Source of the DNA: Flaviflexus massiliensis
Lineage (GTDB): Bacteria; Actinomycetota; Actinomycetes; Actinomycetales; Actinomycetaceae
Length of the DNA stretch: 64,000 nt
Assembly: GCF_001375495.1 (NCBI RefSeq)
Contig: NZ_LN831058.1
Coordinates: 62,001-126,000, forward strand
Reading direction: 5' to 3'
Within the stretch, counting starts at the first letter, position 1. Each line of letters starts with the position of its first letter. A program made the position numbers and the translations under genes. Shown here piece by piece: positions 48-14,540 of the stretch. Below the pieces are notes generated by a model, which worked only from the letters and a program-made list of their open reading frames with translations, did not search any database and was not told the DNA's origin.

Positions 48-182
48 TTCGGTAAAACGGCGGTCTGCGCGGGCACTCACTGCCCGCGCAGACCCATATC
101 TACCACCAAGCCCCAATCGACCATCGATTAAGAAGAAAAATGAAACTCGATGGAGATAAACGCACAATCTGAGGAGAAATAC

Positions 183-542
183 TTGTGTACCAACACGATG
201 AAGCGAACCCTGACAGCTCTCGGACTTGCCGTGGCACTGCCCTTTACTCTCGCAGCCTGCGGGGAAGAAGCGGCAAAGCCCAGTAAGGATGAAGTCAGCG
301 CGGCCATGGATGACCTCCTAGCGGCCTCGGGCATGAGTCCCGAAACACTGGAAGCAACGGGACTCAGCGAGGAGCAGTTCAACGGCTACCGCAACTGCAT
401 CGTTAACTCGATCTACGATGACGTCTCGGCCGAGTCCCTCCAGTACCTGGTTGACGGAGACTACGAGTCCCCCGTGTCGAAGGACGACAGCGACAAGATC
501 GACAGCGCCATCCAGACCTGCGCTTCCGAACTCGGAGTCTAG
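183..542 (+). CDS. Secreted lipoprotein, two-cysteine tandem family, one domain
   Basis: Unrecognised lipoprotein of about 119 residues. It has a positively charged start, a hydrophobic stretch and the lipobox LAAC, so it should be lipid-anchored outside the membrane. The rest is one copy of the family domain: a KPSKDEV opening, an NCIV cysteine followed by YDDVS, and a second cysteine near CASELGV at the end. The two cysteines probably form a disulfide (inference). I prefer the TTG start at 183 because GAGGAG lies at 171-176, six bases upstream. The ATG at 198 has no ribosome-binding site, and the ATG at 150 adds a non-signal-like leader. It has almost no acidic linker between lipobox and domain, unlike its paralogues downstream. 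Function unknown. Confidence 0.75.
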   Translation: MCTNTMKRTLTALGLAVALPFTLAACGEEAAKPSKDEVSAAMDDLLAASGMSPETLEATGLSEEQFNGYRNCIVNSIYDDVSAESLQYLVDGDYESPVSKDDSDKIDSAIQTCASELGV

Positions 543-815
543 GACCTAGGAGTATTCCGATGGGTGGGTGGCCGCTGGCATCATCGTTTGCGCCACTCAC
601 TAATTCTTATAGTCGATTCACACTGTGCCGCGCGGGTGAAGCGGTCGAGGACATTGCAGAACACCGATCCCTAACCACCATGCCAACCCCTCGAGACAAG
701 ACACTGACATTCCTAACAACCCAGTGAAGTCTACCTACCAATCGTTCACACCTGTCGAACATCGGGGCTATGGACGGTAAGCTTTCAATGGCGTCCAGAA
801 CCTGAGGAAGAGTAA

Positions 816-1334
816 ATGAAGCGGCCTTTTCGAACAGCTTTCCTGCTGCTCACCATCCCCCTAGCTCTCGCGGCTTGCTCCTCTGACAATGAGGAGGCCT
901 CATCCGAGACTTCCTCCGAACTCTCGGTGGACCCGACCGAGGACGATCTCAGCCCCGGAATCAACGACGTACCCCAACCCGGTCCCGACGACTCGTCAAA
1001 CGCTGAAGAACCCGAGCTCCCAGAGCCAACAGAGGATGCCGAGGAACCGGTCGACCCTGCGGATGGTCCCAGCAAGCAAGAGGTGGCTGACGGCCTGCGG
1101 GTGATGATGATGGAGGAGCTGGCTGTCACCGAAGAAGATCTTGAAGAGTCAGGTGCAACAGAACTCATGGAAGAGTTCTACACGTGCGCGACCGACTCCG
1201 TATACGACTCCGTCTCCACCGAGGCACTGGTGGCGCTCGCGGAATCAAATATTGATGCGGAGCTGTCCGAAGAGGACTCCTCCATTCTCAATACGGCAAC
1301 GATCGAGTGCGGAAACAGCATCTCAACCCGGTAG
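816..1334 (+). CDS. Secreted lipoprotein, two-cysteine tandem family, divergent member
   Basis: A 172-residue lipoprotein with the lipobox LAAC near residue 20. A purine-rich site (GAGGAAG) sits just before the ATG. Residues about 22-83 form a Ser/Glu/Asp/Pro-rich linker that looks disordered. Residues about 84-172 are a diverged copy of the family domain. It keeps PSKQEV, FYTC, VYDSVS and a second cysteine in IECGN, but it has lost the ELGL ending. About 270 bases without a gene separate it from the upstream paralogue, so it probably has its own promoter. Extracellular, membrane-anchored location is inferred from the lipobox. Function unknown. Confidence 0.8.
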   Translation: MKRPFRTAFLLLTIPLALAACSSDNEEASSETSSELSVDPTEDDLSPGINDVPQPGPDDSSNAEEPELPEPTEDAEEPVDPADGPSKQEVADGLRVMMMEELAVTEEDLEESGATELMEEFYTCATDSVYDSVSTEALVALAESNIDAELSEEDSSILNTATIECGNSISTR

Positions 1335-1533
1335 CTCTCCTCGCCCGTTTGACCGTCCCCAGCCTCGAACAATCAGCAAGGATCCAGCTCCCCTTCTTTT
1401 TGCACACGGATAGTCAGCAATCTGGCACCCCACTCCGTATGATCGAGAAAATGTGATCTGAGGAGCCTGATCGCCCATCCTGATGTTTATCAGGTGGAGC
1501 CTCCTTACAGGTCAGGGAACATTGGGGAAGCTC

Positions 1534-2277
1534 ATGAAGACAAAACTAGGTTTGCGTTCCTTGTACGCAGTGGCTCTGACCGTTGTCCTGCCACTTGGGT
1601 TGACAGCATGCGGAGACAACTCTGCCAACACCAGTAGCGAGACGTCTAGCGAGATCATCGAGGGTGAAGAGGACGATCCCACCGAATCCGTAGACGCACC
1701 GAGCAGCGGGGACAACAGCACCTCAACCGATAAACCCACGAAGGACGAAGTTGTCGATGGAATAGCGCAGATGCTGGCAGAGCACGGGCTCACCGACGAG
1801 TATATGGAAGCCAGCGGCGGCTCCGCCGAGCAACTCCACAACTACTACGTGTGCACCGTTGATGGCTTCTACGACGATGTCTCTACAGAGACACTCGAGA
1901 ACATCGCAAACGGGAAAGATGAGATGCCCGACGATGAACAGGCACTATTTGACGCGGCTGCCGACAATTGCGTGGGCGAACTCGGCCTCGAGGACGACAC
2001 TCAGCAAAGCGATGCGGCAAAGCCTTCCAAGCAGGAGGTTGTCGATGGAATTGCAAGGATCCTTGAAGAGGACGGTGTGACCCCGGAGTATTTGGAAGCC
2101 AACGGTATTACCAGCGAACAGCTCAACAGCTACTACACCTGCATCGTCGACGAGATCTACGACGTCATCTCCATCGAGGCGCTCACCGCCTTCGCCAACG
2201 GGCAGGACCAGATGCACACCGAGGACCAGGCACCCTTTAACGAAGCTGTCACCACCTGCCAAGGTGAGCTCGGCTAA
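1534..2277 (+). CDS. Secreted lipoprotein with two copies of the two-cysteine domain
   Basis: A 247-residue lipoprotein. The start at 1534 is chosen over the ATG at 1483 because it gives MKTKLGLRS, nearly identical to the start of the paralogue at 2695, and a normal signal peptide ending LTAC. GGGGAAG lies immediately upstream. A short acidic Ser/Glu/Asp linker is followed by two tandem copies of the family domain (coding bases about 1732-1986 and 2020-2274). Each copy has K-P-[ST]-K-[DQ]-E-V-V-D-G, a YY[VT]C motif, a YDxxS motif and a C-terminal C..ELG. The two units start 288 bases apart, an internal duplication. The second unit resembles the 2695 paralogue more than it resembles the first. 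Function unknown. Confidence 0.8.
   Translation: MKTKLGLRSLYAVALTVVLPLGLTACGDNSANTSSETSSEIIEGEEDDPTESVDAPSSGDNSTSTDKPTKDEVVDGIAQMLAEHGLTDEYMEASGGSAEQLHNYYVCTVDGFYDDVSTETLENIANGKDEMPDDEQALFDAAADNCVGELGLEDDTQQSDAAKPSKQEVVDGIARILEEDGVTPEYLEANGITSEQLNSYYTCIVDEIYDVISIEALTAFANGQDQMHTEDQAPFNEAVTTCQGELG
1732..2274 (+). repeat. Internal duplication of the two-cysteine lipoprotein domain
   Basis: Two in-frame copies of an approximately 85-residue unit lie within one lipoprotein gene, starting at 1732 and 2020. They share the opening K-P-x-K-x-E-V-V-D-G-I-A, the paired tyrosines before the first cysteine and the C-x-G-E-L-G end. This shows that the domain has duplicated within a gene as well as between genes. 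Confidence 0.75.
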
Positions 2278-2694
2278 ACAGAACTGAGCACAGCTCCTCA
2301 TCAAACTCCTTGCGAGCCCAAAGCTCCAACATCACGAGGCGGGATGCAACATCACCTGTTGTGTTCCGAGCCAATTTCACGTCCTCAGACACCGCGATCT
2401 TGACAATCAATCTGGACCACTGACGGCCCCTCACTATCGCTTCCGGCCAATAATTCAGGCCCTAAATCAACGCATATTTCATGAATACGCATGAATAAAA
2501 CTCAACTACTCAGCGCTTTGGGGAGTCGTAGCTTGATTGGATCTTTTCCTATCAGACTAGGAAAACACCGGTATCCAGGATTTGGGGATTGGGTTTTCAT
2601 GGGAACCGCTTTCCTAGCCAAAGCGTGACAGGCCACCGGGAATGTCCATACTGTCGAACCCGTAAATAAATCTTCATCAACTGTTGGAGTAATC
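2278..2694. other. 417-base intergenic region with two inverted repeats
   Basis: No gene is supported here. Close to the downstream lipoprotein gene there are two inverted repeats. One has eight-base arms TTTTCCTA (2544-2551) and TAGGAAAA (2558-2565). The other has six-base arms CGCTTT (2607-2612) and AAAGCG (2620-2625). Both contain TTTCCTA, so they may be two versions of one regulator's site. This is the longest spacer in the lipoprotein array and probably holds the promoter of the gene at 2695. Confidence 0.5.
2544..2565. promoter_or_regulatory. Perfect 8-base inverted repeat, operator candidate
   Basis: Arms TTTTCCTA (2544-2551) and TAGGAAAA (2558-2565) flank a six-base spacer, about 130 bases before the ATG of the lipoprotein gene at 2695. 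There is no T-run after it, so it is a better operator candidate than terminator. The binding protein is unknown. Confidence 0.35.
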
Positions 2695-3267
2695 ATGAAG
2701 ACGAAACTTGGTAAGCGTTCCATTTACGCAGCTGGCCTTGCGCTTGCGCTTCCTTTCGGCCTGGCAGCATGCGGGGACGACTCAGAAGATACCAATGACA
2801 AGACCACCGTCGAGGAAACCGAAAACACGGATACCGAGATTGACACGGACACGGACACCGAAGACGGCACCGACGAGACCGATTCGGTCGATGCTGATGA
2901 GGATGCAGACAACGGTGCAGACGGCCTCGGCACGGACGACGGTACCGACACGGACACCGATACCACTGACGACGGCACCGATGGTGACCTCAGCGCCTCG
3001 GGTGACAAGCCGTCCCCCGACGAGGTCGTTGATGGCCTTGCTGTGATCCTGGAAGATTACGGCGTCAGCGTCGAGTCGATGGAAGCTGCCGGCATCTCCG
3101 CCGAGCAGCTCGACAGCTACTACACCTGCATCGTTGACGATGTCTACGATGACGTTTCCGCCGAAACCCTCAACTCGATCGCTAACCAGCAGGATCAGAT
3201 GCTCCCTGATGACCAGGCCGCATTCAATGAGGCTGTCACCAGCTGCCAGGGTGAACTCGGCCTGTAA
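2695..3267 (+). CDS. Secreted lipoprotein, two-cysteine family, with long Asp/Thr linker
   Basis: A 190-residue lipoprotein. TTGGAG (2684-2689 region) precedes the ATG, and the signal peptide ends LAAC. Residues about 25-104 are a very low-complexity acidic linker built from Asp-Thr and Asp-Gly repeats. Residues about 105-190 are one family domain: KPSPDEVVDG, YYTCIVD, VYDDVS and CQGELGL. The linker would act as a long, strongly negative spacer between membrane and domain (inference). This gene is the last of the array and is followed by a strong hairpin terminator. Function unknown. Confidence 0.8.
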   Translation: MKTKLGKRSIYAAGLALALPFGLAACGDDSEDTNDKTTVEETENTDTEIDTDTDTEDGTDETDSVDADEDADNGADGLGTDDGTDTDTDTTDDGTDGDLSASGDKPSPDEVVDGLAVILEDYGVSVESMEAAGISAEQLDSYYTCIVDDVYDDVSAETLNSIANQQDQMLPDDQAAFNEAVTSCQGELGL

Positions 3268-3617: not shown

Positions 3618-5705
3618 GTGAGTACTTCAAGCAATTCCCGGTCTGTCCGGAAGCCTGTAGCCCAGGATCGTCGTTCAGTAAGTCAGGGCGTGCCAGCAAC
3701 ACCGGTACGTCCCCAACCTGCGGCCTTTGCTCCTGTCGGTCGCATCCCCATTATCGATGTCTCCCCTGTCATTGAGGACGGCAGATGGGCCGCGAAGGGC
3801 ACCGTTGGTGAGGCTTTCCCGGTCCGTGCCACCGTTTTCCGTGAAGGTCACGATGCGTGGAGTGCGGAGGCGGTCCTCAACCGTCCCGATGGTTCGGAAG
3901 CTCAGCGTGTGCGCATGGTTGATATTCGCCCGGGCCTGGACCGCTACGAGGGTTGGTTGGTGCCGGACGTGGCGGGTGACTGGTCGTTCCATATCGAATC
4001 TTGGTCCGATCCCTACCGCACATGGGAACACGATGCGACACTGAAGATCGAGGCCGATGTTGATGCTCAGCTGATGATCGATGAGGGTGTCATCGTCCTG
4101 GAGAAGGCCCTGGCCAACATGCCGAAGGGGTCCCCCGAGGCGGAGGTCATCTCCGATGCTATTGGTGCTATGAAGGCTGGTGGCTCCCCCACCGAACTGC
4201 TCGCACACGGGATTTCATCGTCCGTTCACGAGGCCCTCGAGACGTACCCGCTGCGTGAAATGCTCACTTACTCCGCGCAGTACCCGGTCCGGGTCGACCG
4301 CACGGAAGCGCTCTATGGCTCGTGGTACGAGTTTTTCCCCCGTTCCACCGGGGCGTTCCAGAACGCTGATGGTAGCTGGGTATCCGGAACACTCAAGACC
4401 GCGACCGCCGAGCTGGATCGCATCAAGTCGATGGGCTTCACAGTCGCATACCTGACTCCCATCCACCCGATCGGCACCACGAACCGTAAGGGCCGGAATA
4501 ATACGTTGACTGCGGAACCCGGGGATCCCGGCTCTCCGTACGGTATTGGTGCCGCCGAGGGCGGTCACGACGCGATTCATCCCGAACTCGGCACCTTCGA
4601 TGATTTCGATAACTTCGTCAAGCGCGCTCGGGAACTTGATTTGGAGGTGGCGCTCGACATTGCCCTCCAGGCATCCCCGGACCACCCGTGGGTGAAGGAT
4701 CACCCAGAGTGGTTCACGACCCGTGCCGATGGATCGATTGCCTATGCCGAGAACCCGCCCAAGAAATACCAGGATATTTATCCTCTGAATTTCGATAACG
4801 ATCCCGAAGGGATCTACGTGGCGATCCGGGACATGCTCTTCCTGTGGGCAGACCACGGAGTCACATTCTTCCGCATCGACAATCCGCACACGAAGCCGCT
4901 CGTCTTCTGGCAGCGGATTCTGGCAGAGTTCCGCGAGAAGTACCCGGATGTCATCTTCCTGTCGGAGGCCTTTACAAAGCCGCCCATGCTCCAGACGCTG
5001 GGCGCTATCGGATTCCACCAGTCCTACAACTACTTCGCGTGGCGGAACGAGAAGACCGAGATCGAAGAGTATTTGATGGAGCTCGCCTACGAGACCGACC
5101 ATTTGGTGCGTCCCGCTTTCTGGCCGACAACGCACGATATTCTCACCCCCTACATGCAGCGCGGCGGAGTACCCGCCTTCGCGATCCGCGCGATCCTTGC
5201 CGCGACCGGCGCTCCCACGTGGGGCATCTACTCGGGCTACGAGTTGGCGGAAAACATTGCTCGCCCCGGGGCGGAAGAGCAGATCGACAACGAGAAGTAT
5301 CAGTTCAAGTCACGCGACTATTCTCTTGGCGAGTCAACGGGAATCACCCCGCTCCTCACCAAGCTCAACGAGATCAGGGCTGCCCATCCCGCCCTCCAGC
5401 GGCTCCGCAACGTCACGATCCACAAGACCTCGTCGGACAAGATCCTGTGCTTCTCCAAGAAGACGAGAGACGTGGAGGGCGTAGACGACACCGTCATCGT
5501 TGTCCTCAACCTCGACCCGTTCATCACCCACGACGCTCTGATCGATCTTGACTTCGCGGCCCTGGGAGTGAGCGACTATGCTGGTCGGTCCATCATTGTT
5601 GACGATGAGCTCACCGGTCAGACATTCGAATGGGGACAGCGTCCCTTCGTGCGTCTTGATCCGCACGGCTCAGCGGCACACATCCTGTCAGTGAGGGTTT
5701 CGTGA
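3618..5705 (+). CDS. glgE: Alpha-1,4-glucan:maltose-1-phosphate maltosyltransferase GlgE
   Basis: A 695-residue GH13_3 enzyme, normal length for GlgE. It transfers maltosyl units from alpha-maltose-1-phosphate to growing alpha-1,4-glucan in the cytoplasm. The catalytic motifs are visible: the nucleophile region FFRIDNPHTKP (Asp about 421), the acid/base region LSEAFTKP (Glu about 450) and the THDIL aspartate (about 507). The first 40 or so residues are a Ser/Pro/Arg-rich tail that is not part of the fold. Start GTG 3618 has AGGG seven bases upstream. The stop overlaps the treS start by four bases (GTGA), so translation is coupled. First gene of the glgE-treS-mak/glgB operon. Confidence 0.95.
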   Translation: MSTSSNSRSVRKPVAQDRRSVSQGVPATPVRPQPAAFAPVGRIPIIDVSPVIEDGRWAAKGTVGEAFPVRATVFREGHDAWSAEAVLNRPDGSEAQRVRMVDIRPGLDRYEGWLVPDVAGDWSFHIESWSDPYRTWEHDATLKIEADVDAQLMIDEGVIVLEKALANMPKGSPEAEVISDAIGAMKAGGSPTELLAHGISSSVHEALETYPLREMLTYSAQYPVRVDRTEALYGSWYEFFPRSTGAFQNADGSWVSGTLKTATAELDRIKSMGFTVAYLTPIHPIGTTNRKGRNNTLTAEPGDPGSPYGIGAAEGGHDAIHPELGTFDDFDNFVKRARELDLEVALDIALQASPDHPWVKDHPEWFTTRADGSIAYAENPPKKYQDIYPLNFDNDPEGIYVAIRDMLFLWADHGVTFFRIDNPHTKPLVFWQRILAEFREKYPDVIFLSEAFTKPPMLQTLGAIGFHQSYNYFAWRNEKTEIEEYLMELAYETDHLVRPAFWPTTHDILTPYMQRGGVPAFAIRAILAATGAPTWGIYSGYELAENIARPGAEEQIDNEKYQFKSRDYSLGESTGITPLLTKLNEIRAAHPALQRLRNVTIHKTSSDKILCFSKKTRDVEGVDDTVIVVLNLDPFITHDALIDLDFAALGVSDYAGRSIIVDDELTGQTFEWGQRPFVRLDPHGSAAHILSVRVS

Positions 5706-7525
5706 CCATTACTTCCAACTCTGCATCCAATAATTCACCCTTCGGCGACCTCGGCCGACCGGGCCTGAGTAATGACCCGAAATGGTATGAGACAGCAGTG
5801 TTCTATGAGGCGCTGTTGCGTGCCATGGAGGACTCGGATGGCTCCGGCATCGGCGATCTCCGCGGCTTCGTCAACCGCCTCGACTACCTGCAGTGGCTGG
5901 GAGTCGACTGTATTTGGATCCCACCCTTCTATCCGTCCCCCATGAAAGACGGCGGATACGACATTTCGAACTACACGGCGATCAAGTCCGAATACGGCAC
6001 GATAGACGACTTCATCTATCTCGTGGACGAAGCGCACGCACGCGGGATCAGGATCATTATCGACCTGGTGATCAACCACACCTCCGACCAACACCCGTGG
6101 TTCCAGGCTTCCCGCTCCAACCCGGAAGGACCCTACGGCGACTTCTACGTGTGGTCAGATACCGATGAAAAGTACGAGGATGCTCGCATTATCTTCATCG
6201 ACACCGAATCATCGAACTGGACGTTTGATCCGGTGCGCAGGCAATTCTTCTGGCACCGCTTCTTCTCCCACCAGCCCGACCTGAACTTCGAAAACCCCGC
6301 CGTCCAAGAAGCGGTTTTCGATGTGTTGCGCTACTGGTGCCGGATCGGCGTGGACGGGTTCCGTCTCGACGCGATCCCCTACCTCTTCGAGGAGGAGGGC
6401 ACAAACTGCGAAAACCTTCCCCAAACGCATGATTTCATTGCACGGCTGCGGGCGATGATGGATGAGGAGTTCCCGGGCCACATCCTGATCGCGGAGGCGA
6501 ATCAGTGGCCGGAGGACGTGGTGGAGTACTACGGTACCGAGGAAGCCCCCGAATGCCACATGTGCTTCCATTTCCCCGTCATGCCCCGCATCTACTATTC
6601 GCTACGCGAGCAGCGAGCCACCTCGATCAAGGAGATCCTGGCGGCCACGCCCGAGATCCCCAAGGGTGGGCAGTGGGGCACGTTCCTCCGCAATCACGAT
6701 GAGCTGACCCTCGAGATGGTCTCCACCGAGGAGCGTGCCGCAATGTACGGCTGGTATGCGGAAGATCCAAGGATGAGAGCAAATGTCGGTATTCGGCGCC
6801 GGCTCGCTCCCCTGCTCCGCAACTCCCGGCCCGAGATCGAACTCGCGAACGCACTCCTGCTCTCGCTCCCGGGCTCACCTTGCCTCTACTACGGGGACGA
6901 GATCGGGATGGGAGACAACATCTGGTTGCCGGACCGCGACAGTGTGCGCACACCCATGCAGTGGACCCCGGATCGGAATGCGGGCTTCTCGTCCGCTGAC
7001 CCGGGCAAGCTCTATCTGCCTCCCATTCAGTCGCTCGTTCACCACTACCAGTCGGTCAACGTCGAATCGCAGCTCGCCCAGCCCTCCTCACTCCTGCACT
7101 GGACGCGGGGCATGCTGGAGATCCGCAAACAGTACCCCGTGCTCGGCTCGGGTGCGTTCGAGATTCTCCCAACCAACAACGAGGCTGTTCTCGCGTTTCT
7201 TCGCTACGACGAATCCGATGCCATCCTCTGCATCATGAACATGGCGAACACGCCCCGTGCCACCACGATCACTCTCCCGGAGAAGTACGCGAACTGGCGG
7301 GTCACGGACGTGTTTGGTGGTGCTGGTTTCCCCGGCATTGAGGATGATGGCACCTACCTCTCCACGCTTGGCTCGAGGGACTTCTTCTGGCTCTCCATCT
7401 CCTCCCCCGAGCTCGTTGAGCCCGCACCGGTGGATGGGATGCCGGCGAAGGTGGAGCCGCAGCACGACCGCTACGAGGCAGCTGTCGTCCCCTCCCCCAT
7501 CCAGCCCGAAACAGAAAAGGACTGA
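5702..7525 (+). CDS. treS: Trehalose synthase / maltose isomerase TreS
   Basis: A 607-residue GH13_16 enzyme that interconverts trehalose and maltose and so feeds maltose to the maltokinase encoded next. The N-terminus [20 protein letters not shown] is characteristic of TreS. Catalytic residues are the GFRLDAIPY aspartate (about 223), the LIAEANQ glutamate (about 265) and the RNHDEL aspartate (about 333). The Cys-containing insert after the nucleophile (GTNCENLP) is typical of TreS. The last 25 or so residues are a low-complexity tail. The GTG start overlaps the glgE stop, and the gap to the next gene is five bases. Confidence 0.95.
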
Positions 7526-7530
7526 CTATC

Positions 7531-10500
7531 GTGTTTGCTTCGGATCTGGCCAAGTGGATGCACACCCAACGCTGGTTTGTATCCTCGGATAAGTCTGACA
7601 CTGTCACCGTCAGGGGCAGGTGGGTGATCGCCTCCGGCGACCCCCAGGTCGATATTTTCCTGATCGAATCTGGTTCCTCCACCTACGTCGTTCCCCTCGT
7701 TCTCAGCTCAACGGCATTCGAGCATCCGATGATCACCCGAGAGCGCGGCAAGCTCGTCTACGACGCGACCGAGCTCCGTTTCGGTCACCAGGCACTCCTT
7801 GAGGTGTGCCTGCCTCAGTGGGTTGAGGGTGAGGGTGACTGCAAGTCCCTGACCGGCAGATCCGAAGCTGACGCGATGCCGATCGCTACTTCCGCGAAGT
7901 ACACCGGGGAGCAGTCCAATACGTCGATCCGCTACCAGTTGAAATCCGGCGAGACCGTCATTCTCAAGGTCTTCCGGGTTCTCAACGCCGGACTCAATCC
8001 GGATGTCATCCTCACGCAGGCTCTGGCGGAGGCGGGCTCCTGCCACGTCGCTCCCCCGAAGGGCGCAGCTCTTGCCACCTGGGAGGAGGACGGGACCGAG
8101 GTCTCCGGCCACATCCTCGTAGTTCAGGAGTTTATGAGCGGAGCGCACGATGCCTGGCAGTTCATGACCGAACAGGCAGCCCGCGGCGATCTCAACCGGG
8201 ACTCCGTGTATGAACTCGGGGCCGCCACCCGGTCCATTCACGACACTCTCGCAACTGTGATGCCCACGGACGAGGTGACAGACGGGGCCCGCAAGAACCT
8301 GGTTGATGCGTGGCGCAGGCGCGCGGATGAGGCTCTTGCCAGCGCACCCGATCTTGAGCCCTACAGGGACCGCATCGAGGCAGTCTTTAGCTCCGCCGAG
8401 CAGTCGGAGAACTGGCCGGCCCTTCAGCGTATCCACGGCGACTACCACCTGGGTCAGGTCCTTGATGTTCCGGACCGCTCCTGGGTCATTCTGGACTTCG
8501 AGGGCGAACCGCTGCGCCCGCTTGCGGAGCGGACCGCACCGGACTTGGCGCTGCGTGATGTTGCGGGGATGCTTCGGTCCTTCGACTACGTCGGCGGCCA
8601 TATCTCCCGAGAGGGATCCGATCCGAAGAGCGCACAAGTTTGGGTGGACAAGGCACAGGCGGCCTTCCTCGACGGGTACGGGGAACTCCCAAAAGGCACG
8701 GATGAGCTCCTGCGTGCCCTCGAGCTCGACAAGGCGCTATACGAGGTGTCCTACGAAGGTGCACACCGGCCCGACTGGATCTCCGTCCCCACCGCGGCCG
8801 TCCACACCATTCTGGGGAGCGCTCCAAATCAGGCACCAGAAACGGCCACAGCCACCACGGCAGCGGTAGCGGAAGGCACAGAACAGGTAGCGTCTGAGAC
8901 GCAAGCGTCCACCGGCACCGGTGGTCAGGAGCGGGCGAGTGCACCCGATGCTACAAACCGCGCAGAGTTGCTGGATTCCGACTCCAAGACGGATGAGGAC
9001 GGGCTAGCCTTAGAGGACAAGAGGAAAGAGGTCACCATGGAACTTGAGCCCGTAAACGTGTCGCAGGATAACTTGGCGGCAGTCGCCTATGGCGACTTCC
9101 ATTCCCCTCACGACATTCTCGGCCCCCACATCGGCACCGGCTCTGTCACGATCCGGGTTGTCCGCCATCTTGCAACCGAGGTCACGATCGAAACCGATCG
9201 AGGCGACGTCGAAGCACGCCACGAATACAACGGCGTCTGGGTTGCGGTCATCCCCGGTGAGGACGTTCCCGACTACCGTGTACGGGCAACCTACTCGGAG
9301 GACCTCGAGACGGTCACGGACGACCCGTACCGGTTCCTGCCCTCCATGGGTGAAATGGACACGTACCTCATTGGCGAGGGCCGCCACGAAGAACTGTGGC
9401 ACGTCCTCGGTGCCCACGTGAAGTCCTACGACTCCCCTCTCGGCACAACCGACGGCACGGCCTTCACGGTGTGGGCTCCCAACGCGCGGGCTGTGCGCGT
9501 CGTGGGTGACTTCAACCATTGGAATGGCAAGGCCCACGCCATGCGTTCCCTTGGCACCTCCGGCATTTGGGAACTGTTCGTCCCGGGTGCGGAAGAAGGA
9601 CAGGCCTACAAGTTCGAAATCCAGTACCAGGATAGTTCCTGGCACCAAAAGGCAGACCCGATGGCGCGCCGCACCGAGAAGCCACCGCTGACCGCATCGA
9701 TCATTGCCCGCTCCCATTTTGAGTGGAGCGATGACGCGTGGATGTCGAAGCGTGCCTCCACAAACCCGCTCGATGGCCCGATCTCGATCTACGAGGTGCA
9801 CCTCGGATCATGGCGTATGGGACTGAGCTTCAAGGACATGGCCGAGCAGCTCATTGGGCACGTCAAGTACCTTGGCTTCACGCACGTGGAGTTCATGCCG
9901 GTGGCAGAGCACCCCTACGGTCCCTCGTGGGGCTACCAGGTGACCTCCTACTACGCTCCCTCGGCACGATTCGGCACACCCGATGAGCTCCGCTTCCTCA
10001 TTAACGAACTGCACAAGGCCGGTATCGGCGTCATCATGGACTGGGTTCCCGCCCACTTCCCCAAGGACGCTTGGGCACTCGCCCGTTTCGATGGCACCCC
10101 GCTCTACGAGGATCCGGATCCTCGCCGTGGCGAGCACCCCGACTGGGGCACCTACATCTTCAACTACGGACGTCACGAGGTGCGTAACTTCCTCGTTGCG
10201 AACGCACTCTACTGGTTGGATGAGTTCCACATTGACGGCATCCGTGTCGATGCTGTTGCTTCCCTCCTCTACCTGGATTACTCTCGCGAGGAAGGTCAGT
10301 GGCAGCCCAACGTGTACGGCGGCCGTGAAAATCTGGAAGCAATCTCCTTCCTCCAGGAAGCCAACGCCACCGCCTACCGTCACCACCCTGGCATCATGAT
10401 GATCGCCGAAGAATCGACCTCGTGGCCGGGCGTGACGGACATGACCGAGCGTGGCGGACTCGGTTTCGGACTCAAGTGGAACATGGGGTGGATGAACGAC

Positions 10501-11232
10501 ACCCTGGGCTATCTCGCTGAGGAACCGATCAACCGCCGCTACCACCACGGTGAAATCACCTTCTCCCTCGTCTATGCGTTCTCGGAACAGTTCCTGCTGC
10601 CGATCTCCCATGACGAAGTGGTGCACGGCAAGGGCTCCCTCTATTCAAAGATGCCGGGCGATGACTGGCAGAAGCGTGCCGGTGTCCGGTCCCTCCTCGC
10701 CTACCAGTGGGCTCACCCCGGCAAGCAACTCATCTTCATGGGCCAGGAGTTCGCTCAGATCGACGAATGGAACGAAGGCAAGGGCCTGGACTGGTGGTTG
10801 ACAGAAAACCCCGGTCACAACCAGGTCACGTCCCTCGTGGCCGAGCTCAACCAACTCTACGTTGAGCACCCCGCCCTCTGGTCCGATGACTTCACGAACC
10901 ACGGTTTCGAGTGGATCGAGGCTGCCGATGGTGACCACAACGTTCTGTCCTTCGTCCGCAAATCCAAGGATGAGAAGGACTGGCTCGTTGCCGTCATCAA
11001 CTTCGCCGGCACCCCGCACGAAAACTACCGGGTCGGTTTGCCCTTCCCAGGTGAATGGGTCGAGATCCTCAACACGGACGACGAGAAGTACGGCGGCTCG
11101 GGAGTGGTCAACACCGAGGTGAAGACCGATCCGATCGGGTGGAATGGGCGAGCACAGTCCACTGCCCTTCGTGTTCCGCCGCTAGGCGCAGTCTGGCTCA
11201 CGCCACGCTCCCTCTCTCGCGACAGTAAGTAA
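7531..11232 (+). CDS. glgB: Maltokinase-GlgB fusion (maltose kinase plus branching enzyme)
   Basis: A 1233-residue fusion. Residues 1-435 are a maltokinase (Mak/Pep2): an N-terminal cap, then the kinase motifs HGDYHLGQ (Asp about 304) and DFEGEP (Asp about 322). It phosphorylates maltose to the GlgE substrate. Residues about 436-502 are an Ala/Thr/Glu-rich linker. Residues 503-1233 are a full 1,4-alpha-glucan branching enzyme. Its CBM48 domain is followed by a GH13 barrel with Asp about 907 (GIRVDAVAS), Glu about 960 (IAEES) and Asp about 1028 (SHDEVVHG). Start is GTG 7531. An internal ATG at 9037, behind a purine-rich site, could produce a separate 731-residue GlgB. Fused and separate arrangements are both known in actinobacteria. 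With GlgE and TreS this completes the GlgE pathway. Confidence 0.93.
9012..9039 (+). promoter_or_regulatory. Internal ribosome-binding site and ATG for a free GlgB
   Basis: Within the maltokinase-GlgB fusion, at the boundary between linker and branching enzyme, lies a run of purines (AGAGGACAAGAGGAAAGAGG, 9012-9031) five bases before an in-frame ATG at 9037. Translation from it would give a 731-residue protein of ordinary GlgB length. The site looks like the original glgB start retained after fusion. Confidence 0.5.
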
Positions 11233-11267
11233 CGGTCTAACCTCCACGGGGAGGAAATGACACCAGT

Positions 11268-11299
11268 GTTGGGCGGTACTCATTCGAGTACCGCCCAAC
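11268..11299. terminator. 13-base-pair hairpin, probable bidirectional terminator
   Basis: Arms GTTGGGCGGTACT (11268-11280) and AGTACCGCCCAAC (11287-11299) with loop CATTCG. It lies 36 bases after the maltokinase-GlgB stop on plus and 39 bases beyond the helicase pseudogene stop on minus, between convergent genes. The plus side is followed by CAGTTTCTTTA. Confidence 0.65.
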
Positions 11300-11337
11300 C
11301 AGTTTCTTTACGCCATAACCGTAAGAATCATTGCGAA

Positions 11338-14300
11338 CTACGCTGCGACCCTCGCGATATTGAAGACTTCCGCCGGCATAGGCTGATCCAGTTTCCACGT
11401 CACGTGCATGGGTTGCGACCCCTCGTGGCCTAGGTAGGTCACAGGACCGAGGAACATGTACGGTTCGGCTGCACCGGTCAGGGTTGTTGGCAGCTTCGAC
11501 CTGCGTACGAAGAGGAGCGGCCTGGTGGTTGAGAGGCCCTGATAGATTTGTCCCCCTTTCGCTCTCGGGTGTCGTGTTCCCTTGAGAATCCCATCCGAAT
11601 TCGGACGGCGTCATCGCATAGTCGCGGTACATGGTTTGTGGGGAGAAGTGCTTCTCGGTCTTTTCCAGGGTCACAAGGAGCGCTGCGGAGTCGGTGGACT
11701 GCGACAGGAGGACACCCTCAACCTTGCCCTTGGGTGCGGTTCTCGTCTTTCCCTCATGCATCCCCAGTCCCGCATATAGCTCATCCCTCGTGTAAACACC
11801 GTGAGTACGCAGAGGGGACCCGGCTATCGGAGGTTCGGCGAGGATGTTGTCGCGGGAACGATCCGACACGATCTCCCACATTTGGTCCAATTCGGTCGCG
11901 ATCTGCGGGTAGCTGCGCAGGACCGCGAGCGCCTCATCCAGCTCAACGGTTCGATCATCAATCGTGCCGTCGTTCCAGAAGCTAAAGATCAGCATCCATG
12001 CGAGCCGGGATTCTTCTACACTCATGTCCTTCTCGGTCGCGGATCCGTGTAGGAGCTCGCGATAGCTTGCGTATCTGATGGGATCGTTGACGTGACGGAG
12101 CGTGAAGAGGCGGTTGTTGAGGTATCGGAATTGTTCTTCGTCGAACAAGCTCCTCAGGTTTTTCTGCACGCCCGAGTATGCAAGTAGTGAGATCCAGGTG
12201 CGTCGAATACTTTGCTTGCCGTCCTTGGTTACAAGTGAATCTGTGCTTGCTCGGTAGATGCTCTCGATGCTGCGACCTGTCTCGGTTAAGAAATTACCGA
12301 GCTGTTGGGTGGGTAGGCGCGAGTCTTCCCCGCCTCGATAATCTGCAAAGAAGTCGGCGATCACCGCATTGAGTTTCGTTGTTGGAAGCTGGAGAGAATC
12401 CTTGAGGTTATTGGTGACTTCCTTCTGAACAGACTCATCGAGCTCGATGAGGCATCCTGCCGGAGTATCGGGGAACTCCTCCTTCACGGTCTTTTCGGTC
12501 AGAATCCCACCGCGAGCAAAGATCGAGAACTTCCGATCAAACTGGAATTGCGAAGAGTGGTTACCGACGAAGTCCAAGACGGTCAGGACCGCCTTCTTTT
12601 CTGAGCGGCGCAGTCCCCTGCCAAGCTGCTGTTGGAAGAGCGTGGGTGACTGGGTGGGGCCGAGCATGAGGATCGTGTCGACTTCGGGAATATCAATGCC
12701 CTCGTTGAAGATATCGACGGTGAAGATGATTGCGAGGGGATCTTCCGGATTGGCGAGGCGCTTGATTTCCTGTCGGCGTCTTTCTTCAGAATCCTCCCCA
12801 ACGAGAGCTGTTGCCGGGATACCCGCCCTGTTGAATACCTCCGCCATGTACTTCGCGTGCTTCTTCGATGCACAGAATCCAAGCGCAATCATGCGACGCG
12901 GGTCGGCAATCTTTTCTTCAAGTTCGTCGAAGATTGCACGTAGGCGAGCATCCGCCGACGCCCCTTCCACGTACACGGATTCAAGGCTGGCGGTGTCGTA
13001 CTTCCCCTTGGCTGACTCTGGCCGCCAACAAGTCGGTATCATCCTTAATCCCGAAGTAGCGGAAGGGCACGAGTAGGTCAGCGTCGAGTGCATCCCACAG
13101 CCTCAGTTCGGTCGCGATCCTGCCATCAAAGAACTTGGTGGCAACATTGACGCCGTCGCCTCGCTCGGGAGTAGCGGTGAGACCCACGAGCTCGCGCGGC
13201 GTGAAGTGTTCAATCACCTTCCCGTAAGTCGGTGCGCTGGCGTGATGGAATTCGTCGATGATGACGACATCGAAGTGATCCGTTGGGAGCGAGGTTAGTT
13301 TCTCGCCACGCAGTGTTTGGATGGAGGCAAAGACGTGCTTCCAATTTCTTGGTCTCATCCCATCAGCAAATATCTCCCCAAAGTCGCGGTCCCGCAGCGT
13401 TGATTGGAAAGCTAAACGAGCTTGCTGAAGGATCTGGGTACGGTGCGCGATAAACAGGAGGGTGGGGTTGTCCAGACTTTGCCGCAAATACTTGAAGTCG
13501 AGGTCGGAGAGGATGGTCTTGCCCGTACCGGTGGCTGCAACGACGAGATTCTTATGGTGACCGCGGCTCCGTTCGGCTGCCAAATGATCAAGCATGATCG
13601 CCTGGTGGGGCCGAGCATAAACATCGAGGAAGGTCGTATCGATCGCCGCCATGCGCCGATCAACCGATTTCGATGCTCTGCGCAGAGCATCGTCTAACTG
13701 CTCGTATTGGTCGGACGAATAGGAGACAAACTCGGGGTCATTCCAATAACCGTCGAACGCTGCACGGAACTGCTGGAGCGCTCCAGGAGTTTGAACGCTG
13801 GAGAGGCGCACATTCCATTCCAAGCCATCGGTCATGGCAGCCGCAGACAGATTCGACGAACCAACATAGCCCGTACTGAAACCGGTATTTCGTTCAAACA
13901 GCCAAGCCTCTGCGTGAAGCCTGGTCGTATTGTTTTGGTAGCTAATCTTGATCTCTGCACCGAGATCGTGCAGGGCCTGGACCGCCTTGGCGTCGGTCGC
14001 ACCCATGTAGGTCGTGGCAATGATGCGAACTGGGACACCCCGTTCCTGGGCTTTTCCCAGCGCGTCCCGGAGAACACTGATGCCAGAAAGTTTAAGGAAA
14101 GAGCAAAGGAGATCAACGCGGTCGGCTGATGCGAGCTCATGTTCCAGTTCCCTGCTGAGAGAGGGCTGCTTCGGCGCATTTGTCAGAAGCGTGACGTCCG
14201 AAAGCGGGGTGCTGGGGCGGATAACCGCTTCCTGGTTTGAGCGCTTGAGTGCGACCAGCTGGGCAATCGACTGTTTGTCGCCAACCGTGATCTCGTCATC

Positions 14301-14540
14301 CGGATCAAAACTACGCAGGGCGCGATTGATGATATAGATCTGCTCTTCGGTCTTCACAATTGTGAGCTGCTGTTCAAGACGTTGCGCAACATAGGTGGTG
14401 AGAACCCTGATGCGTTCAGCATCCTCCACTTTTTCAAAGTCCGGTATTGCCCCTTCTGGGAACCTCTCACGCGGCAATCGCCGCGAGTGAAGGAGCTCGT
14501 AAAGCCCGTAATGAAGCCTGCCCTCATCGCCAACATTCAT
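11338..14540 (-). pseudogene. PLD/DEAD-box helicase with DUF3427, two frameshifts
   Basis: A DNA helicase of the PLD-nuclease/SF2/DUF3427 family, expected length about 1060 residues. The first open frame (14540 to 12981) carries a PLD-like domain, Walker A ATGTGKT, the box DEFHH and LTATPERGDG. It leaves frame near the C-run at 13004-13007. The matching continuation KYDTASLE, with QLGRGLRR (helicase motif VI), is in another frame. A second shift near the C-run at 11552-11556 moves the last 70 or so residues (QIYQGL to FNIARVAA, stop 11338-11340) into a third frame. The PLD motif reads HAEAWLF where the family has HAKAWLF, so the catalytic lysine is also lost. Both shifts are at homopolymers, so sequencing error is possible, but the Lys loss favours decay. 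No restriction partner is nearby. Confidence 0.8.

What the first reader, a model, noticed from the sequence alone, without database searches (positions are those of the whole stretch)
9012..9039. Internal translation start may release free GlgB from the maltokinase-GlgB fusion
Exactly at the linker/GlgB boundary there is a strong purine-rich site five bases before an in-frame ATG. Initiation there yields a 731-residue, normal-length branching enzyme. One gene could thus make both a fused and a free GlgB.
Basis: partly seen in the sequence, partly recalled or inferred. Interest (0 to 1): 0.6.

Follow-up and report, generated by a model that had tools for sequence, protein, structure and literature searches.

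The report
Hidden start inside fused glycogen gene
A bacterial gene that joins two glycogen enzymes into one protein carries, at the joint, a second start signal that evolution appears to have kept in more than one lineage, so the cell can probably also make the second enzyme (the branching enzyme GlgB) on its own.

Summary
In the Mak-GlgB fused ORF (window 7531-11232, 1233 codons), GAGGAAAGAGG (9021-9031) precedes, by 5 nt, an in-frame ATG (9037-9039, codon 503) that would give a 731-aa GlgB. Of 1284 other internal ATGs in 204 genes of this genome, 7 have as strong an SD. All 6 genus genomes are fused with an in-frame ATG there; the SD is strong in 5, moderate in G002. In those 5, third codon positions just before the ATG are invariant while second positions are 60% identical, the reverse of protein constraint; rare codons that turn over elsewhere are kept. 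On a GlgB tree the fused state needs 9 changes, 7 forced by well-supported branches; 35 of 42 fused genes have an in-frame ATG/GTG with SD <= -6 in the linker. A distant genus (9 genomes) keeps its SD codon too. Best reading: a leaky fusion giving Mak-GlgB plus free GlgB, the only branching enzyme found in 6 of 6 genomes. No product has been seen. Internal in-frame starts are a known kind; I found no description of this recurrent form in the papers searched.

The parts
3618..5705 (+). glgE, maltosyltransferase, first gene of the likely operon
   Evidence: Pfam GlgE_dom_N_S, GLGE_C
5702..7525 (+). treS, trehalose synthase
   Evidence: TIGR02456 889 bits, over cut-off
7531..11232 (+). fused mak-glgB ORF, 1233 codons, GTG start with SD energy -5.9
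   Evidence: start energy
7531..8820 (+). maltokinase (Mak/Pep2) part
   Evidence: Pfam Mak_N_cap residues 9-80, over cut-off; TIGR02457 putative maltokinase partial match, 171.6 bits, under its cut-off of 375
8821..9036 (+). low-complexity linker, unalignable among genus genomes except its last about 60 nt
   Evidence: mean ungapped identity in 5 genomes 0.83 at -15..-1, 0.55-0.59 at -60..-16, 0.27-0.39 further up to -150
9005..9010 (+). TAGCCT element (TAGCMT) at a fixed 26 nt before the ATG in 5 of 6 genus genomes; role unknown
   Evidence: no sigma-70 consensus pair found by scan
9021..9031 (+). internal Shine-Dalgarno GAGGAAAGAGG
   Evidence: duplex energy -10.0; third positions invariant in 5 genomes
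9037..9039 (+). internal in-frame start codon ATG (codon 503)
   Evidence: ATG in 6 of 6 genus genomes
9037..11232 (+). GlgB branching enzyme, 731 codons, predicted free product
   Evidence: Pfam GlgB_N, CBM_48, Alpha-amylase, Alpha-amylase_C; TIGR01515 908 bits, over cut-off; 3k1d E 9.8e-274

Best explanation
The fused mak-glgB reading frame contains glgB's own translation initiation region. Ribosomes that start at the weaker upstream GTG make the 1233-aa Mak-GlgB. Other ribosomes load on the internal SD at 9021-9031 and start at ATG 9037, making free 731-aa GlgB. Shown here: the site, its predicted strength, its nucleotide-level conservation, its presence in most fused genes examined. Inferred: that ribosomes use it, and that the point is to supply extra GlgB, the only branching enzyme found in the genome, for glucan made by the separate GlgC/GlgA route as well as by GlgE, while a share of GlgB stays tethered to the kinase that makes maltose-1-phosphate.
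For: Site strength and rarity: 7 of 1284. In 5 of 6 genus genomes no same-length window of its own ORF does as well, p about 0.001 each (related genomes, so not independent). Nucleotide-level selection in the 5 alignable genomes: third-base identity 1.00 against second-base 0.60 at -15..-1; only 3 of 1138 five-codon windows in the Mak and GlgB domains have invariant third bases. The SD lysine is AAA in 5 of 5, while elsewhere AAA is kept in 4 of 38 pairings and 0 of 12 all-Lys columns have more than 2 AAA. Of 13 columns with Met in all 5, this one has mean SD -10.5, the next best -5.4. The g1 internal SD (-9.2 to -11.7 in 5 of 6) is stronger than that of separate glgB genes beside mak (4 of 84 distinct ones reach -9.2, median -5.5) and than the mak start in 5 of 6; a decaying relic should be weaker. 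Second genus g36: GGAAGGT before ATG in 9 of 9; GGT 9 of 9 while 0 of 83 all-Gly columns have more than 4 GGT. 42 fused genes in 23 groups: 35 have an in-frame ATG/GTG with SD <= -6 in the linker; Fisher p 1.2e-13 against ORF windows, 7e-5 against all positions of the same linkers. The start lies among the 15% least structured places of its ORF in 21 of 23 fused genes. GlgA-type and GlgC matches elsewhere in 6 of 6 genomes (over cut-off in 6 and 5). The fused gene is the only match over the GlgB cut-off in 6 of 6, and no GH57 family member in 6 of 6.
Against: No protein, ribosome-profiling or transcript data. G002, the most divergent genus member, has only a moderate SD (-6.1, window p 0.30), weaker than its mak start (-7.8). 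One of 42 fused genes (L250) has no ATG/GTG in the linker and 6 have SD weaker than -6. Of 23 groups, 13 have window p above 0.05 when taken alone, and in the composition-controlled test only one (Kocuria rosea, 0.034) is below 0.05, g1 itself being 0.061 (neighbouring positions share one SD and blunt that test). The 23 groups are mostly genera, several in one family, so they are not 23 independent fusions and the Fisher values are too small. In g36 the contrast with the rest of the linker is slight (0.81 against 0.65-0.77) and GAA in 9 of 9 is not very special (4 of 40 all-Glu columns have 8 GAA). An SD inside a coding region does not always drive initiation.
Confidence: 0.77

Rival explanations
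1. Relic: the SD and ATG are left over from the time when glgB was a separate gene and now do little.
For: The fused state is scattered on the tree and sites resemble those of separate glgB genes (ATGGAAGAGTG-like motif in both states). For the young fusions inside genus g4 decay may not have had time.
Against: In g1 synonymous sites are strongly diverged (codon identity 0.52-0.62 where the residue is shared) and the linker further up is unalignable, yet third positions at the site are frozen and the SD is stronger than in separate genes. The SD codon is also kept in g36.
Confidence: 0.12
2. Translational pause: the internal SD slows ribosomes between the two domains so that Mak folds first; the ATG is incidental.
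For: It lies between the domains; SD-like pausing has been proposed in the literature (recalled, no call).
Against: A pause needs no start codon at a fixed spacing, yet the ATG is kept in 6 of 6 and 9 of 9 genomes, and SDs are placed preferentially before start codons within linkers (p 7e-5 over 23 groups, with the caveats given above).
Confidence: 0.06
3. Nested gene: an internal promoter as well as an internal start makes glgB an independent transcription unit inside the ORF (TAGCMT at -32..-27 as a -10 box). This would add to, not replace, internal initiation.
For: TAGCMT at a fixed distance in 5 of 6 genomes, written with rare Leu codons (CTA 4, TTA 1) although CTA is kept elsewhere in only 2 of 33 pairings; CTCCRA 17 nt upstream in 4 of 5 (read by eye from the rows).
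Against: No sigma-70 consensus pair found; the -35 is unlike consensus; absent from G002; not tested in other groups.
Confidence: 0.2
4. Protein-level constraint: residues around Met503 are conserved for GlgB folding, and the SD is a by-product.
For: Met and a preceding Lys recur in 5 genomes.
Against: Residues vary (RKEV, VKEV, GKEV, RKGA) while bases are kept; third positions 1.00 against second positions 0.60.
Confidence: 0.03

Closest known systems
Cas11 made from an internal in-frame start in cas8/cas10 (type I-B, I-C, I-D CRISPR)
   Same: One gene gives a long product and a free C-terminal product from an internal ATG, with a potential SD (passages of PMC11899642).
   Different: There the short product was supported by mass spectrometry and a start mutation. 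Here it would be a whole enzyme of a recurrent metabolic fusion, and nothing is shown at protein level.
Isoform ORFs with internal starts found by Ribo-RET in M. tuberculosis
   Same: Truncated isoforms started inside annotated ORFs in an actinobacterium; two checked by western blot with start mutants (passages of PMC9094748).
   Different: Those authors expect many isoforms to reflect pervasive translation; the present site carries nucleotide-level conservation.
TreS-Mak (TreS-Pep2) fusions of the GlgE pathway
   Same: Fusion of neighbouring GlgE-pathway enzymes, known in many bacteria (passages of PMC4306142, PMC6509496, PMC11046441).
   Different: Here Mak is fused to GlgB, not TreS; the passages I saw do not mention Mak-GlgB.
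NCBIfam NF011293 (PRK14705), 1224 positions, named 1,4-alpha-glucan branching enzyme
   Same: Same Mak-GlgB length and order; 8 of 396 genomes of the order score over its cut-off, all 8 of genus g36.
   Different: The window protein scores 1348 bits against a cut-off of 2376; the model says nothing of two products.
Stand-alone GlgB with solved structure 3k1d (M. tuberculosis, recalled)
   Same: The predicted free product aligns with this chain almost from its first residues.
   Different: There glgB is a separate gene (recalled).

Membership tests
Gene with internal in-frame translation start (two products from one frame) | In-frame start codon with SD at functional spacing inside a longer ORF | tested here: met
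Gene with internal in-frame translation start (two products from one frame) | Start site under selection at nucleotide level | tested here: met
   for 5 of 6 genus genomes; for 9 genomes of g36; G002 not testable by codon alignment
Gene with internal in-frame translation start (two products from one frame) | Both products present in cells and the short one lost on start-codon change | not testable with these tools
   needs western blot, N-terminomics or ribosome profiling
NF011293 / PRK14705 fused Mak-GlgB family | Mak followed by GlgB in one frame | tested here: met
NF011293 / PRK14705 fused Mak-GlgB family | Score over the curated cut-off (2376 bits) | tested here: not met
   1348 bits
GlgB branching enzyme (TIGR01515) | Score over the curated cut-off | tested here: met
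   908 bits against 463.95
Internal promoter | Sigma-70 -35/-10 pair upstream of the internal start | tested here: not met
   0 found in 8700-9200; other promoter types not covered

The most novel reading that the evidence does not exclude
Mak-GlgB fusion is a leaky fusion as a rule. Such fusions arise again and again by loss of the stop between neighbours, and each time selection keeps, and in g1 strengthens, the downstream gene's start, so that tethered and free enzyme are made together from one gene. If so, many annotated multidomain enzymes in bacteria may be two-product genes, recognisable by frozen third codon positions at the domain joint.
Probability: 0.45. Interest if true: 0.72.

Novelty: new variant of a known kind. 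Interest (0 to 1): 0.55.

Why it matters
Gene fusions are usually read as making one obligatory bifunctional protein and are used to infer interaction and stoichiometry. Here the sequence record suggests that the fused and the free form are both wanted, in at least two distant genera. It would change the annotation of these GlgE-pathway fusions, give a simple rule for finding other leaky fusions, and offer a direct test of why a cell would tether only part of its branching enzyme to the kinase that makes maltose-1-phosphate.

Tried and rejected
Chance match: rejected by place and conservation, although the single-genome rarity is modest (7 of 1284). Assembly error creating a false fusion: rejected, 6 of 6 genus genomes are fused. 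The search tool's open_frame column as a sign of fusion proved misleading: of 53 family loci fetched as candidates (L139-L191), 7 are fused, 45 are separate (39 with mak in glgB's frame but a stop between, 6 in another frame) and in 1 no mak was found. So my sample gives no frequency of fusion, and the same-frame excess among separate pairs (48 of 87) is biased by that choice.

A tiny upstream ORF (ATGGAAGAG...TGA) overlapping the ATG was considered from the recurring ATGGAAGAGTG motif, by eye; dropped because its distance varies (16 or 17 nt) and the reading is not kept. A programmed frameshift ending at the +1-frame TAG (at -32 in 5 of 5 strong-site genomes) is not excluded, but I saw no shared slippery site by eye. 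One search counted genus g53 as three groups through a label slip; one search corrects it and replaces that Fisher value (8.6e-8).

Paper searches for a described Mak-GlgB fusion. For internal starts in fusions: no papers; 20 of 103 listed. sought analogues. I saw listings, and passages only of PMC4306142, PMC11046441, PMC6509496, PMC9094748 and PMC11899642; no paper was read whole. The passages shown do not describe a Mak-GlgB fusion. Most subscription papers are not in that library.

Rows dropped before counts: G002 was left out of the five-genome codon tests (part A) because its linker does not align; it is in the 6-genome and group counts. Duplicate loci of one genome (L019, L023; 5 of the 24 fused loci) were counted once. 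The separate-gene count was first made with duplicates (4 of 87) and repeated on distinct DNA (4 of 84).

Full report
What is there. The window's genome is most likely of the Actinomycetaceae (inferred: the best named matches are two Actinomyces, and Schaalia and Varibaculum are among the next; the genus itself is unnamed in my tools). A likely operon glgE (3618-5705), treS (5702-7525), mak-glgB (7531-11232) encodes the GlgE pathway; the same order is seen in all 20 loci examined. Mak and GlgB share one uninterrupted frame of 1233 codons with a linker of about 70 residues. At the joint stands GAGGAAAGAGG-TCACC-ATG (9021-9039). The ATG is codon 503; the remaining 731 codons carry GlgB_N, CBM_48, the catalytic and the C-terminal domain and align with the solved branching enzyme 3k1d from its residue 10 on.

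Is it more than chance? In 204 genes from 464 kb of the same genome (the window), 7 of 1284 other internal ATGs have an SD as strong (<= -10.0), and 10.5% of 200 genes have a site that strong within their first 40 codons. The mak start itself is a GTG with -5.9. So the internal site is predicted to be the better start of the two, but taken alone it would be one of a number of such matches in the genome.

Conservation in the genus. All 6 genus genomes held have the fusion. Linkers run from 38 to 143 residues by the measure and do not align except near the ATG: mean ungapped identity among 5 genomes is 0.83 at -15..-1, 0.55-0.59 at -60..-16 and 0.27-0.39 from there to -150. At -15..-1 third codon positions are identical in all pairs (1.00), first in 0.88, second in 0.60. 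Only 3 of 1138 five-codon windows elsewhere have third positions invariant in all 5. Lys AAA is used 5 of 5 times in the SD, while elsewhere AAA survives in 4 of 38 pairings. Of the 13 all-Met columns, the site has mean SD -10.5 and the next -5.4. G002, the sixth, has an in-frame ATG with a moderate SD (-6.1; window p 0.30) and was not in the codon tests.

Other fusions. Of 152 loci classified by frame and stops, 25 were fused, 23 after removing duplicates. On a GlgB tree of 115 rows (21 fused) the fused state needs 9 changes, 7 forced by well-supported branches; gains and losses cannot be told apart and the root is a midpoint. With 19 further fused genes from the order search (24 of 30 loci fused, 5 already held) there are 42 fused genes in 23 groups (genera, one split in two, and two named species): 35 have an in-frame ATG or GTG with SD <= -6 in the linker, 6 a weaker one, 1 none. 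Against same-length windows of each ORF the combined p is 1.2e-13; against all in-frame positions of the same linkers, which controls for base make-up, it is 7e-5; without g1, 5e-12 and 1.6e-4. These values treat genera as independent, which they are not, so they overstate the case. One by one, 13 of 23 groups have window p above 0.05, and in the composition-controlled test only one is below 0.05. In genus g36, 9 of 9 genomes keep GGAAGGT before ATG, GGT being used 9 of 9 times while 0 of 83 all-Gly columns have more than 4 GGT; but identity there is 0.81 against 0.65-0.77 in the flanking stretches, a slight contrast.

Relic or working site? Separate glgB genes beside mak have weaker SDs (median -5.5 of 84 distinct ones; 4 at or below -9.2) than g1's internal sites (-9.2 to -11.7 in 5 of 6). 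Together with frozen third positions amid strong synonymous divergence (codon identity 0.52-0.62), this argues for use and for selection on strength, as one would expect where initiating ribosomes must compete with elongating ones (inference). Among separate pairs mak often stops in glgB's frame a short way before its start (48 of 87 in frame, biased sample), so one stop mutation could make the fusion; this would explain the recurrence (inference).

Why free GlgB? All 6 genomes match GlgA-type (over cut-off in 6) and GlgC (over cut-off in 5) models away from this operon. The fused gene is the only match over the GlgB cut-off in each of the 6 (G001 has one further partial piece with a stop), and none has a GH57 family member, while that search rang in 9 of 14 control genomes. 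So the fused gene appears to be the only source of branching enzyme. A cell that makes glucan by two routes may need more GlgB than maltokinase, and untethered. This is inference.

Open point. TAGCMT at exactly -32..-27 in 5 of 6 genomes, using rare Leu codons, is conserved at nucleotide level. It could be a -10 box, a stop for +1-shifted ribosomes, or a leftover of mak's stop. A sigma-70 scan found nothing.

Verdict. Mechanistically it is a new case of a known kind (internal in-frame starts, as for Cas11). The new part is the recurrence and apparent selection of such starts in metabolic gene fusions.

Noticed in passing
window 9005-9010 (and 8982-8987): TAGCCT element at a fixed 26 nt before the internal ATG, written with rare Leu codons in 5 of 6 genus genomes; CTCCRA lies 17 nt further upstream in 4 of 5. 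Promoter-like or a relic stop; unexplained.
   Followed up: partly
window 150-3267: Four successive small ORFs (150-542, 816-1334, 1483-2277, 2695-3267) look like tandem paralogous lipoproteins (L-A/T-A-C near the N-terminus, a repeated PSKDEV-like stretch); none of the 4 has a Pfam match at E 0.001.
   Followed up: partly
window 11237-14540, minus strand: Two overlapping ORFs carry pieces of what looks like one PLD/ResIII helicase-DUF3427 protein, as if one gene were split by a frameshift.
   Followed up: partly
G001:C1:2648825-2649502: A second, partial GlgB-like stretch (69% identity to query 1007-1230) with a stop inside, perhaps a GlgB remnant.
   Followed up: no
separate and fused glgB starts of the family (for example L181, L144, L056, L050): A recurring ATGGAAGAGTG-like motif lies 16-17 nt before the glgB ATG in several genera, fused or not (by eye); it looks more conserved than an SD needs to be.
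   Followed up: partly
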